Positions 8,746 through 12,199 of a DNA stretch of 64,000 nt are shown here, piece after piece. Location: NCBI RefSeq assembly GCF_039537585.1, contig NZ_BAABAU010000001.1:1178001-1242000 (forward strand), in the 5' to 3' direction. The position numbers and the translations under genes are program-made. This DNA is from Frondihabitans peucedani. Its GTDB lineage: Bacteria; Actinomycetota; Actinomycetes; Actinomycetales; Microbacteriaceae. Positions within the stretch are counted from its first letter, which is position 1, and every line of letters starts with the position of its first letter. Under the pieces are notes generated by a model. It did not search any database, was not told where the DNA came from, and worked only from the letters and a program-made list of their open reading frames with translations.

Positions 8746-8884
8746 GCTGGATGCTCCCGGGGTCGACGCGGTCGAGTTGCCGCCGTTCGCGCAATTCTAT
8801 TGGACGTTTCCGGCGCGTTACGGCTGCTTGCTCGGGTGGTGCTGCTGCTGTGGTGCCCGCCTCGTGCGGGTTAAGGCCTTCGCG

Positions 8885-8967
8885 TGCATATGGACGGAGA
8901 TTCTCGGCCTTCGTACATATGGACGGAGATTTTCGGGCGCTGCGTACAAATGGACGGAAATTCTCGG
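8885..8967 (-). repeat. Repeat array upstream of lysC, arm A (three copies)
   Basis: Three direct copies of a 23-24 bp unit on the plus strand: TGCATATGGACGGAGATTCT (8885 on), GTACATATGGACGGAGATTT (8913 on) and GTACAAATGGACGGAAATTC (8944 on), each ending in TCGG. Spacing is 29-31 bp. The same core occurs in reverse orientation in arm B at 9008-9112. The array fills most of the 410-bp gap between recR and lysC, which holds no gene. Confidence 0.85.
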
Positions 8968-9007
8968 CTGAGACCCCTCGGATCCCCATGAGTTCTTCCG
9001 GATCTCG

Positions 9008-9112
9008 AGGATCTCCGTCCATATGTACGCAGGAGGGTCTTAGAGCGCAGGATCTCCGTCCATATGTACGCAGGAGGGTCCGACAGCGCAGGATCTCCGT
9101 CCACATGTACGC
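9008..9112 (-). repeat. Repeat array upstream of lysC, arm B (three inverted copies)
   Basis: Three copies of a unit beginning AGGATCTCCGTCCATATGTA at 9008, 9049 and 9090, spaced exactly 41 bp. The first two continue CGCAGGAGGGTC and are identical over 32 bp; the third has CACATG for CATATG. The core is the reverse complement of arm A, so a lysC leader transcript reading through would hold three units followed by three complements and could fold into long hairpins. Confidence 0.85.
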
Positions 9113-9155
9113 GAGCGAGGGGGGAGACCGGGCAGCGCGAGCGAAGCAGCGCGAG

Positions 9156-9755
9156 CTACTCGCTGACGACGCGCCGGCCCTCGAAGGCACGACCGAGGGT
9201 GACCTCGTCGGCGTACTCGAGGTCGCCGCCGACGGGCAGGCCGGAGGCGAGACGGGTAACTCGCAGCCCGAAGGGCGAGAGCATGCGCGACAGGTAGGTC
9301 GCGGTGGCCTCGCCCTCGAGGTTCGGGTCGGTGGCGATGATGACCTCGGTCACGGTGTCGTCGGCCAGGCGGGTGACGAGCTGACGGATGCGGAGGTCGT
9401 CGGGGCCGATGCCGTCGATCGGGCTGATGGCGCCGCCGAGCACGTGGTAGAGGCCGCGGAACTCGCGCGTCCGTTCGATGGCCTGCACGTCTTTGGCCTC
9501 CTCGACGACGCAGATCGTCGCCGGCGACCGCCGCGGGTCGCGGCAGATGGAGCAGGTCTCCTCCTCGGTCACGTTGCCGCAGATCTCGCAGAAGCGGACC
9601 TTCGTCTTGACGTCGATGAGGAGCTCGGCGAGGCGGGTGGTGTCGAAGTTCTCGGACTGCAGGATGTGGAACGCGATCCGCTGCGCCGACTTCGGCCCGA
9701 TCCCGGGCAGGCGGCCGAACTCGTCGATGAGGTCTTGGACGATCCCCTCGTACAT
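9156..9755 (-). CDS. recR: Recombination mediator protein RecR
   Basis: 199 aa from the ATG at 9755. It works with RecF/RecO in loading RecA at gaps. It starts [20 protein letters not shown] (helix-hairpin-helix), then a zinc finger with CEICG and CSICR, then a Toprim domain beginning [13 protein letters not shown] at 9761 overlaps the dnaX stop as GTGA, but GGAGG lies 8 nt before the ATG and only 3 nt before the GTG, so the ATG is preferred. It is coupled to dnaX. Confidence 0.95.
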
Positions 9756-9757
9756 CG

Positions 9758-12199
9758 TCACTCACCTCCGAGCGGCGCGCCGGACTGCGGAGTCACCTTG
9801 GGAGCGATGGTCTCCTCGTGCATGAACTGCGCGTTCAGGATCTCGCGGACCACGGCCTCGCCATAGCGGGAGTTCTGCGGCACGCTGCCGCCGGCGCGCT
9901 GCGAGGAGCGCACGGGCTGCGGCGCGGCAGCCGCGGGAGTCGGCGCGGGCGCACCAGCGGGAGGAGTCGCGGCGGGGGCCGCGGGCACAGGATCGACGTC
10001 GACCGACGGCACGCCGCCCGGAGGCTCTTCGGTGATGTACTCGGGCTCGTCGGGCTCCGGCGGCGCCGACTGCGGGATGGGCGCGACATCCCAGCCGGTC
10101 GTCGGCGCGGCGGCCGCCCGGGTGGGAGCCGCGGCAGCAGCCGGCGCAGGGGCAGCAGCCGGCGCCGAGGCGCGAGCGGCAGGCGCAGATGCAACAGGAG
10201 CAGATGGGGCAGGCGCGGACACGACAGGCGCAGATGCAGCAGGCGAGGCCGCGACAGCTGGCGCAGCAACAGGAGCAGCAGCCGGCGCGGAAGGCGCGGC
10301 AGCACCAGCCGACGGAGCCGCGGGCCCGCCCTCCTCCGGGCGCTCGACCCGCGCGATGTACTTCACGCGCACGCCGAGGATCTGCAGGATCGCGCGCCGC
10401 AGGTGCTCGCTGACGCCCTCGCCGGCGCCGACGGGCCGCTTGAACAGCTCGACGTCGTTGTGGCTCGGGAAGCTCAGGGTCAACACGTCGTCGGCGAACC
10501 CGCGGACGGTCGCGGTCATGACGACCATCCAGGCGGAGAGCTTGTCTCGCTCGAGCGCCTCGAGGATCTCGGGCCAGGCGTCGCGGAGCTGCTGCAGAGA
10601 CACCGGAGCAGCGGGCGTCGTCACGGCATCGGCCGTCTGCACCCAGGTGCTCGAATGGGCTGACGTCGGCACCGCCGGCTCAGGCGAGACGTCGCCAGCA
10701 TCGGGCGACACCGCAGGATCGGGCGACACCGCGGCAGGATCAGGAGCCTGAGCCGCGGCGGGAGCCGCAGGCGCCTGCGCAGCCCAGGCCTCGGCAGCCG
10801 CCGCCGGGGACGACGATGCGACCGACGGAGCGGAAACCGTCACCGACGGAGCAGAGGCCCCCGGAGCGGAAGAAGCGGAGGCGGCAGCCGAAGCACCGGC
10901 AGCCGAAGCACCGGCAGCCGGAGTACGGGCAGCCGAAGGCCCGGCAGCAACGGGCGCAGAGCCGGCAGCCCGCGGAGGGGTCGCCGACGCTCCGCCGGAG
11001 GTCTGCCCGGCTCCGGGACCCTGGACGCCAACCCGCCGCTCGAGGCGCTCGACTCGGGCGAGGGCGCCGCGCTCCGTCTCGTCGCTCTCGGGCACGAGAA
11101 CGCGCGCGATCATGAGCTCGAGGTGGAGCCTCGGCGAGGTCGCCCCGGTCATCTCGGTGAGCGCGCGGTTGACGACGTCGGCGGAGCGCGAGAGCTCGGC
11201 CGCGCCGAAGGCGTGCGCCTGCCTCGCGAGGTGTTCGAGCTCCTCGGGCGTGATGCCGCGGAGGACGGCGGCCGCCCCCTCGGTCGTGGCGCCCACGACG
11301 ATGAGGTCGCGGAGGCGCTCGAGGAGGTCTTCGACGAAGCGGCGCGGGTCTTGCCCGGTCTGGATCACGCGGTCGACAGCCGCGAAGGCCGCCGCACCGT
11401 CGTGCTCGCCGAGGGCGTCGACGACGGCGTCGAGCAGCGACGCGTGCGTGTAGCCGAGCAGGGCGACGGCCCGCTCGTAGTCGATGACGACCGTGCCGGA
11501 GGCGTCGCCGTCGGAGCCGGCCATCAGCTGGTCGAGGAGGGACAGGGTATCGCGCACCGAGCCGCCGCCCGCCCGGACGACGAGGGGCAGGACCCCGGGG
11601 GCCGCCTGCACGCCCTCGGTCTCGCAGAGCTGCCCGACGTAGTCGAGCATCTGGGCCGGCGGGACGAGCCGGAACGGGTAGTGGTGCGTGCGGGAGCGGA
11701 TCGTGCCGATGACCTTCTCGGGCTCGGTCGTCGCGAAGATGAACTTGACGTGCTCCGGCGGTTCTTCGACGATCTTGAGCAGAGCGTTGAAGCCCTGCGG
11801 CGTGACCATGTGCGCCTCGTCGAGGATGAAGATCTTGTAGCGGTCGCGGGCCGGCGCGAAGATCGCCCGGTCGCGGAGGTCGCGGGCGTCGTCGACGCCG
11901 TTGTGGCTGGCCGCGTCGATCTCGATGACGTCGAGCGAGCCGGAGCCGTCGCGCGACAGCTCGACGCAGCTCGGGCAGACGCCGCAGGGCGTGTCGGTCG
12001 GGCCCTCGGCGCAGTTGAGGCAGCGGGCCAGGATGCGCGCGGACGTCGTCTTGCCGCAGCCGCGCGGACCGCTGAAGAGGTAGGCGTGGTTGACGCGGTT
12101 GGTGCGGAGGGCCGTGCGGAGCGGATCGGTCACCTGAGTCTGCCCGATGAGCTCGGCGAAGTTCTCGGGCCGATAACGGCGATACAGAGCGGTGACCAC
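9758..12199 (-). CDS. dnaX: DNA polymerase III subunit gamma/tau
   Basis: About 813 aa from a GTG at 12199, giving the normal N-terminus [19 protein letters not shown]. It is the clamp-loader ATPase. Walker A GPRGCGKT is at about 44-51, zinc cysteines lie between 60 and 78, and ILDEAHM is the Walker B. After about residue 400 come two long Ala/Pro/Ser linkers separated by a folded segment ([20 protein letters not shown] on), which corresponds to the tau domains. The open frame continues upstream to 12403, but that part is not conserved in type. It is followed directly by recR. Confidence 0.95.

What the first reader, a model, noticed from the sequence alone, without database searches (positions are those of the whole stretch)
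8885..9112. Three-plus-three inverted repeat array upstream of lysC
The 410-bp recR-lysC gap carries three copies of a CATATGGACGGAGAT unit and three reverse-complement copies. The inverted arm has an exact 41-bp period and two of its copies are identical over 32 bp. A transcript through it could fold in several alternative ways. The place, just before aspartokinase, suggests either control of lysC or a spreading repeat family.
Basis: seen in the sequence. Interest (0 to 1): 0.65.

Follow-up and report, generated by a model that had tools for sequence, protein, structure and literature searches.

The report
Dispersed repeat tied to a nuclease gene
The repeat cluster in front of lysC is one of about seventeen copies of a species-specific, gene-end repeat that appears to belong to a DNA-binding nuclease gene, and related bacteria carry the same design with a different recognition word; it does not look like a lysC switch.

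Summary
In detail: six copies ('heads') of ATGGACGGAGAT, three pointing right and three left, lie at 8890-9104 between recR and lysC. They are not a lysC control region: the genome has 75 exact heads in 17 islands beside unrelated genes, mostly at gene 3' ends, and none in six congeners. Inner heads face each other 61 bp apart around a conserved core; extra heads sit at helically phased distances although spacers differ. Congeners carry similar systems with other heads: four (G087, G246, G201, G150) have arrays of one geometry (21-31-31, then an inverted head) with heads GGGAGGA, AAGGA or GCAGGA; three (G285, G201, G004) have inward pairs about 65 bp apart. The likely partner is an AbiEi_4-DUF559 gene (winged helix plus nuclease-like domain): in five genomes the best AbiEi_4 hit lies beside that species' array, and the repeat read beside G285's gene predicted 88 dispersed copies there. 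Subfamily matches geometry; species matches head. Best reading: a REPIN-like, probably mobile repeat with a winged-helix nuclease partner instead of a tyrosine transposase. Binding, cutting and movement are inferred, not shown.

The parts
8882..8908 (+). left satellite head 1 (12-mer ATGGACGGAGAT at 8890-8901)
8911..8937 (+). left satellite head 2 (12-mer at 8919-8930)
8942..9030 (.). central module: inner + head (8950-8961), asymmetric core, inner - head (9011-9022), head starts exactly 61 bp apart; 24 such modules in this genome align without gaps, plus one (L054) with a start distance of 62
8974..8991 (+). core of the central module (CCCCTCGGATCCCCATGA here; consensus CCCCTCCGATCCGCATGA); a related core lies between the heads of some elements of G285, G201 and G004
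9008..9048 (-). 41-bp unit 1 (includes the inner - head)
9049..9089 (-). 41-bp unit 2, right satellite head
9090..9130 (-). 41-bp unit 3, right satellite head, diverging after the head
8791..8824 (-). block upstream of lysC seen in all seven congener gaps whatever else lies there; probable lysC promoter/leader, not part of the array
   Evidence: read by eye from the seven gap sequences
9156..9761 (-). recR, whose 3' end adjoins the array

Best explanation
The array is one island of a species-specific dispersed repeat whose heads are recognised as double-stranded DNA by an AbiEi_4-DUF559 protein (N-terminal winged helix, C-terminal restriction-endonuclease-like domain) encoded elsewhere in the genome (L049:3531-4541, -), with the same array directly behind its gene. 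SHOWN: dispersal; kept geometry with variable spacers; helical phasing; gene-end placement; species-specific heads; a matching repeat beside such a gene in six species. INFERRED: the protein binds the heads; its nuclease domain cuts at or near such sites; repair or recombination then copies the element into gene 3' ends, where insertion is tolerated; extra heads and modules arise by local duplication. The recR-lysC gap is a favoured landing site. Any effect on lysC or recR transcripts is a by-product.
For: Own genome: 75 exact heads, reversed word 0; 0 of 397 other family genomes have the inward pair; 0 of 6 congeners have even the 12-mer. Phasing: unique same-strand spacings fit periods of 10.2 bp (own, R 0.90, n=20), 10.5 (G087, R 0.80, n=63) and 10.6 (G246, R 0.48, n=53); no jittered set of 2000 was as strong. 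Successive predictions held: AAGGA arrays in G201, GCAGGA arrays in G150, GAAGGGGATT pairs in G285 (88 elements, controls 0). Partner gene: in each of the five genomes whose arrays were known beforehand (own, G087, G246, G150, G201) the best-scoring of its 5-8 PF13338 hits lies beside an array (G201 by eye, inner heads decayed). All 40 hits were then checked: of 10 genes of subfamilies A and B, 6 by script and a seventh (G201 L394) by eye lie next to their species' repeat; of the other 30, one does. G201 L410 and G285 L404 carry the pair on both sides. Subfamily B goes with inward pairs, A with 21-31-31; the sister A proteins of G087 and G246 (100/99) share the head GGGAGGA. In G004 a third-subfamily gene sits in the recR-lysC gap itself, and G285 has related coding sequence there. 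D224 and E235 of the nuclease-like domain (L395 numbering) are invariant in 9 aligned proteins.
Against: No binding, cutting or movement was tested. For L404 and L410 the repeat was first read beside the gene, so their adjacency is not independent; there only the dispersal is a test. Subfamilies were defined after the adjacency was seen, and the label 'array' itself does not cluster on the tree (4 changes; 121 of 500 shuffles as low). Three A/B genes have no matching neighbour: own A gene L398, broken A gene L397, and G004's B gene L396, although G004 has dispersed pairs. Seven of own's 8 hits have no heads nearby, so the own link rests on one gene. A third-subfamily gene (G246 L406) also has phased GGGAGG words. 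Pfam support for the nuclease domain is modest: DUF559 over its cut-off in own and 5 of 7 others, REase_MTES_1575 under it in all 7. For G246 a 12.5-bp period fits nearly as well (R 0.477). No target-site duplication or empty site could be shown. Near-random spacers with intact heads fit long-term selection at least as well as recent hopping.
Confidence: 0.55

Rival explanations
1. Host-maintained protein-binding arrays at gene ends: a DNA-binding protein (possibly the same AbiEi_4-DUF559 protein acting only as a binder) coats phased heads and blocks or insulates transcription, like phage stoperators. The host benefits, so heads and spacing are kept while spacers drift.
For: Kept heads and spacing with weakly conserved spacers; 21 convergent, 24 co-directional and 3 divergent of 48 islands against 29, 72 and 43 of 144 background gaps (Fisher p 0.002 for convergent, 0.0007 for divergent).
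Against: Few positions are shared between congeners, which a needed insulator would not predict; gene-end placement is equally expected of tolerated insertions, as for REPs (PMC3733652, abstract).
Confidence: 0.24
2. RNA-level element: the inverted heads form long hairpins acting as bidirectional terminators or mRNA stabilisers.
For: Own array folds far better than shuffles (z -11.2 and -9.9); L047 is a bare inverted pair with a near-continuous stem; gene-end position.
Against: Eight folds of arrays of the 21-31-31 type (four direct heads and one inverted) give z from -2.6 to +1.2. Phasing near 10.2-10.6 bp is a B-DNA property (recalled). No Rfam family reaches its gathering score.
Confidence: 0.1
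3. Control region of lysC (leader, attenuator or operator).
For: Position: the first head starts 145 bp upstream of the lysC start.
Against: Sixteen other islands beside unrelated genes; a separate conserved block upstream of lysC; 19 of 28 other-genus loci have a short gap.
Confidence: 0.03
4. Ordinary REPIN/REP repeat moved by a RAYT tyrosine transposase.
For: Inward pairs, extragenic, species-specific, hairpin-forming.
Against: No Y1_Tnp (PF01797) match in any of 7 genomes of the genus, while the control rings in 5 of 14; phased satellites.
Confidence: 0.04

Closest known systems
REPIN / REP elements with RAYT transposases
   Same: Short inverted pairs that can fold as hairpins, dispersed between genes, mostly downstream of genes, some species-specific, with a partner gene that can be flanked by the same repeat (PMC3116915 and PMC3733652, abstracts read).
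   Different: No RAYT found in the genus; the candidate partner has a winged helix and a DUF559/REase-like domain; heads occur in phased multi-head arrays; head words differ between congeners while geometry is kept.
Stoperators of cluster A mycobacteriophages
   Same: Short asymmetric sites scattered at many places and bound by one protein, with differing immune specificities among phages (PMC9283540, abstract read).
   Different: Chromosomal, multi-head, both orientations, associated with a nuclease-domain gene; blocking of transcription not shown.
AbiEi antitoxin operators (type IV toxin-antitoxin)
   Same: AbiEi-type proteins bind inverted repeats, sometimes two sets (PMC7319586, abstract read).
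   Different: Those lie in the operon's own promoter. Here the protein carries a nuclease-like domain and the sites are dispersed; whether an AbiEii toxin gene is adjacent was not tested.
MITEs and multi-site transposon ends (Tn7, Mu; recalled)
   Same: Inverted ends with several recognition sites; copies without a gene outnumber the gene-bearing one.
   Different: DDE transposases were not searched for; no target duplication shown; spacers only weakly conserved.

Membership tests
REPIN/RAYT REP | RAYT (Y1_Tnp, PF01797) gene in the genome | tested here: not met
   0 of 7 genomes of the genus at E <= 0.001
REPIN/RAYT REP | inward pair of conserved words around a spacer, dispersed, extragenic | tested here: met
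   24 modules at start distance 61; 88 pairs in G285; 17 islands
REPIN/RAYT REP | palindromic 20-40 bp REP tagged with GTAG or CGTC | tested here: inconclusive
   Single heads are not palindromic; GTAC often precedes own heads, but no tag was scanned for
Stoperator | site bound by one protein, blocks elongation | not testable with these tools
   needs binding and transcription assays
AbiE type IV toxin-antitoxin | AbiEii (DUF1814) toxin gene next to AbiEi | not tested
   neighbours of the A/B genes were not scanned for it
AbiE type IV toxin-antitoxin | AbiEi-type winged helix | tested here: met
   PF13338 over its cut-off in the own L049 gene (33.3 bits) and in 6 of the 7 other A/B proteins scanned; L410 is under it (22.6 against 25)
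MITE / transposon end | target-site duplication and empty site | tested here: inconclusive
   the seven recR-lysC gaps were only compared by eye and do not align closely enough
lysC leader / riboswitch | match to a known RNA family | tested here: not met
   no Rfam match at gathering score; best 22.1 bits against 55
lysC leader / riboswitch | tied to lysC | tested here: not met
   16 other islands beside unrelated genes

The most novel reading that the evidence does not exclude
A previously undescribed class of bacterial selfish or domesticated element: a winged-helix-plus-nuclease protein (AbiEi_4-DUF559) that owns and spreads short, helically phased recognition arrays at gene ends. Array geometry is fixed by protein subfamily while the recognition word turns over between species, so all copies in a genome change together with the protein, like a bacterial counterpart of PRDM9 or RAYT-REP co-evolution.
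Probability: 0.4. Interest if true: 0.86.

Novelty: new variant of a known kind. Interest (0 to 1): 0.7.

Why it matters
If the link holds, it gives AbiEi_4-DUF559 genes a testable function and adds a nuclease-type partner to REP-like repeats, a repeat kind of which one large class apparently lacks a dedicated transposase (PMC3733652, abstract). It also offers a natural series of protein/site pairs (six head words seen among seven species) for reading how a winged helix changes specificity while array geometry is kept.

Tried and rejected
Considered and rejected: (1) lysC regulation (other islands, separate conserved block). (2) RAYT-driven REP (no PF01797). (3) Plasmid or viral origin: no plasmid match. 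(4) Wider spread of the same words: own pair 0 hits in genome contigs; the GGGAGGA triple hit 15 stretches in unrelated organisms, 13 with one match and two with two, none named as Microbacteriaceae. Both scans may leave out records near this genome. (5) A regulon: 30 neighbouring proteins of the 16 other islands were scanned, 28 with families (BioY, CoaE, ribosomal S1, GH15, rhamnosidase, LytR, carboxyl transferase, LysE, DEAD helicase, PHP and others) and two without; L051 and L053 on one side only, and some proteins are not the nearest ORF. (6) A first de novo scan for phased words gave many chance-like hits; one (G150 L299) proved real. A 21-31-31 grammar scan found nothing convincing in 614 kb of G004, 614 kb of G285 and 400 kb of nearest-genus G035; these are samples, and the scan is weak, finding only 2 places in the G246 and 4 in the G201 island loci. 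(7) Structure prediction was not submitted: its stated rule does not list loci from the genome search.

Caveats on counts. Islands are my grouping of hits. The ORF caller is a crude GC-frame script; ORFs spanning an island were flagged at 8 of 48 islands (3 own, 3 G087, 2 G246) and ignored, and one own island (L050, convergent by eye) was dropped by the clustering rule. In one search the G246 recR-lysC island and one of nine G201 loci were dropped in the same way. In some searches heads and arrays were picked by allowed spacings and at most 2 mismatches, so head identity (0.88-0.94) and spacing agreement there are partly circular; spacers (0.35-0.45) exceed shuffles (0.28-0.33) but are close to the outer flanks (0.36-0.39). 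The less biased spacing evidence is. In one search the 8-base core with 2 mismatches matched 24 of 24 own modules (8.5 expected from shuffles, any position) but 9 of 12 G285 and 5 of 5 G201 elements against 5.5 and 2.6 expected; the longer motif is the better test. The Poisson figure printed rests on an assumed 1.5% coverage and is not used. By hand, 6 of 10 A/B genes against 1 of 30 others gives a hypergeometric 3e-4; leaving out L404 and L410, whose repeat was read beside the gene, 4 of 8 against 1 of 30 gives 4e-3.

Full report
WHAT IS THERE. Between recR and lysC (both on -) the window holds six heads, three on + (8890, 8919, 8950) and three on - (9011, 9052, 9093), all pointing inward. 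For the 14-mer, chance gives 0.15 matches per window; six were found and none of 100 shuffles reached six. The right arm repeats every 41 bp, the left at 29 and 31.

NOT A lysC DEVICE. The genome (G000, 3.69 Mb) has 75 exact copies of ATGGACGGAGAT, against 0 for the word read backwards. I group them in 17 islands; the 16 outside the window were fetched and all were printed. All but one (L047, a single inverted pair) contain a central module. Thirty neighbouring proteins of the 16 other islands are functionally unrelated. Of 48 islands in three species that my simple ORF caller could place, 21 lie between convergent genes, 24 co-directional and 3 divergent, against 29, 72 and 43 of 144 other gaps (Fisher p 0.002 and 0.0007). 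A block upstream of lysC is seen in all seven congener gaps, outside the array (by eye). In 19 of 28 other-genus loci the recR-lysC distance is 63-171 bp, in five 912-1103 bp, and in four no lysC was found within reach.

ANATOMY. Twenty-four modules share an exact 61-bp distance between inner head starts (a 25th, in L054, has 62) and align without gaps; the best match to CGATCCGC lies at the same position in all 24, at most 2 mismatches. Further heads are added outside. Their spacings, after removing duplicated spacers, are 29, 31, 40-42, 71, 81, 101-102 and 113, best period 10.2 bp (R 0.90, n=20; none of 2000 jittered sets as strong). Spacer letters differ between islands. Heads and lengths kept, letters mostly free, and a B-DNA period point to a protein reading double-stranded DNA on one face.

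THE SAME SITE IN CONGENERS. The 12-mer is absent from six congeners, but their recR-lysC gaps are not all plain. G087 and G246 carry GGGAGGA words, G201 AAGGA words at 30-31 bp. G004 holds an AbiEi_4 gene (L408) with a 63-64-nt repeat at both ends. G285 has related coding sequence (by eye, apparently broken) with a 65-nt repeat at both ends. G150 has a 200-bp gap without an array. These words are dispersed. CGGGAGGA pairs: 32 hits in G087, 27 in G246, 2 in G285, 0 in the other four; reversed controls 0-2. AAGGA triples: 13 in G201, 3 in G004, 0 elsewhere; the reversed control is 0 in G201 but 8, 7 and 2 in G087, G246 and G285. With the 21-31 spacing: 11 in G201, 0 elsewhere, one control hit in G246. 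A scan of sampled G150 sequence suggested GCAGGA; its 21-31 pattern then hit 5 times in G150, 0 in the six others, controls 0. In these four species many arrays share one plan: heads at 0, 21, 52 and 83 (or 82), then an inverted head. Phasing: G087 best 10.5 bp, R 0.80 (n=63); G246 best 10.6 bp, R 0.48 (n=53), with 12.5 bp almost as good. Few islands share positions across species: recR-lysC (own, G087, G246, G201), G201 L297 with G246 L232, and G246 L240 with own L044 on both flanks; G087 L215/G246 L241, G087 L222/G246 L233, G246 L239/own L043 and G087 L228/own L048 share one side or a neighbourhood (17, 18, 13 and 8 islands compared).

THE PARTNER GENE. Own island L049 directly follows the stop of a gene with AbiEi_4 and DUF559 domains. 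I searched AbiEi_4 (PF13338) in the seven genomes: 40 hits at E <= 0.001, 30 delivered as loci and the other 10 fetched. In each of the five genomes whose arrays I then knew, the best-scoring hit lies beside an array: own L392 (of 8 hits), G087 L395 (5), G246 L391 (6), G150 L393 (5), G201 L394 (6; by eye, inner heads decayed). A tree of 25 proteins (5 of the 30 loci left out as short or over-long) gives two subfamilies of interest. Subfamily A (99/98): those four non-own proteins, own L398, and a G285 copy (L397) whose frame is interrupted; by eye the A genes other than L397 share the same downstream neighbour. Subfamily B (100/99): own L392, G285 L404, G201 L410, G004 L396. The label 'beside an array' by itself is not clustered on this tree (121 of 500 shuffles as low). 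The ten further hits fit other subfamilies (6) or none (4). A script over all 40 loci finds the species' repeat next to 6 of 10 A/B genes, with L394 a seventh by eye, and phased GGGAGG words next to one of the other 30 (G246 L406). For L404 and L410 the word was read beside the gene, so those two are not independent.

A PREDICTION THAT HELD. G285's B gene lies between two inward pairs of the word GAAGGGGAT(T), and G201's between pairs of AAGGAGA(T). Sampled G285 sequence (614 kb) held 22 copies of GAAGGGGATT with 8 inward pairs at 65-66 bp; the samples of the other species held none. A whole-genome pattern for both words gave 88 elements in G285, 11 in G201, 2 in G004 and 0 in own, G087, G246 and G150, controls 0 in all seven. 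So inward pairs of these words, or of own's word, occur in the four genomes with a detected B gene and not in the three without one; B genes scoring below E 0.001 would be missed, and G004's B gene is not itself next to such a pair. A longer form of the own core occurs in some of these elements: 2 of 18 in G285, 4 of 9 in G201, 5 of 11 in G004, shuffles about 0.04. Of 15 G285 and 7 G201 elements placed, 9 and 4 are in convergent gaps, 3 and 2 co-directional, 1 and 0 divergent, 2 and 1 inside a called ORF.

MECHANISM. Best reading: the winged helix of the A/B proteins reads the head; subfamily sets the spacing rule; species sets the word. The sister A proteins of G087 and G246 share one word. 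The nuclease-like domain keeps D224 and E235 in all nine aligned proteins; that these are catalytic is recalled, and Pfam support is modest (DUF559 under its cut-off in 2 of 7, REase_MTES_1575 under it in 7 of 7). Cutting followed by repair could copy the element into gene ends, with the gene-bearing copy as master. The recR-lysC gap, which holds arrays in four species and an AbiEi_4 gene or its remains in two more, fits a landing site. Binding, cutting and copying are not shown. The chief rival is that the host keeps the arrays as roadblocks or insulators, since intact heads among weakly conserved spacers suggest lasting selection. RNA folding is strong for own but weak for the other geometry (z -2.6 to +1.2 in eight folds), so RNA structure is unlikely to be the shared function.

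RELATION TO THE KNOWN. It works most like REPIN-RAYT pairs (PMC3116915, PMC3733652; abstracts read), but the defining RAYT was not found, so it is not filed there. AbiEi proteins bind inverted repeats in their own promoters (PMC7319586, abstract read; PMC3985639, search listing only). Stoperators (PMC9283540, abstract read) are the nearest case of many scattered short sites for one protein. Searches on DUF559, AbiEi and dispersed, intergenic or phased repeats showed no paper describing this pairing in the titles and abstract starts listed; the library lacks most subscription papers.

Noticed in passing
L179 / L182 (recR-lysC gap of G004 and G285): An AbiEi_4 gene of a third subfamily (L408) occupies the gap in G004, with a 63-64-nt repeat at both ends (77% alike); G285 has related coding sequence split over frames, with a 65-nt repeat at both ends (77%). 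Dispersal of these repeats was only partly checked in the G004 sample.
   Followed up: partly
L181, L182 (G285 recR): RecR of G285 reads as two overlapping pieces in different frames: frameshift or assembly error.
   Followed up: no
Flanks just outside the outermost heads, own islands and G285/G201 pairs: Flanks are often low-complexity and mirror-skewed: pyrimidine fraction 0.62 left and 0.43 right (16 of 16 own islands left higher), 0.66 and 0.28 in G285 (14 of 15), 0.57 and 0.46 in G201 (6 of 7). Unexplained; may record slippage during spread.
   Followed up: partly
L049:4571 (upstream of the own partner gene): A separate inverted repeat AAAGGTCAAC/GTTGACCTTT (5' ends 54 bp apart) precedes the gene; possibly its own operator.
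   Followed up: no
L309:18560-18900 (G150): Three tandem copies of about 110 bp, each with an inverted GACTCCACG...CGTGGAGTC, another palindromic repeat.
   Followed up: no
L323:11050-11420 and L323:5860-6160 (G004): Further repeats (AGTCGGCGGGTGTTC, CACCCCCGCCTGGCCAGATC), the first beside a masked stretch.
   Followed up: no
G246 L406: A third-subfamily AbiEi_4 gene has four phased GGGAGG words nearby (1181-1333), the only such case among the 30 non-A/B hits.
   Followed up: no
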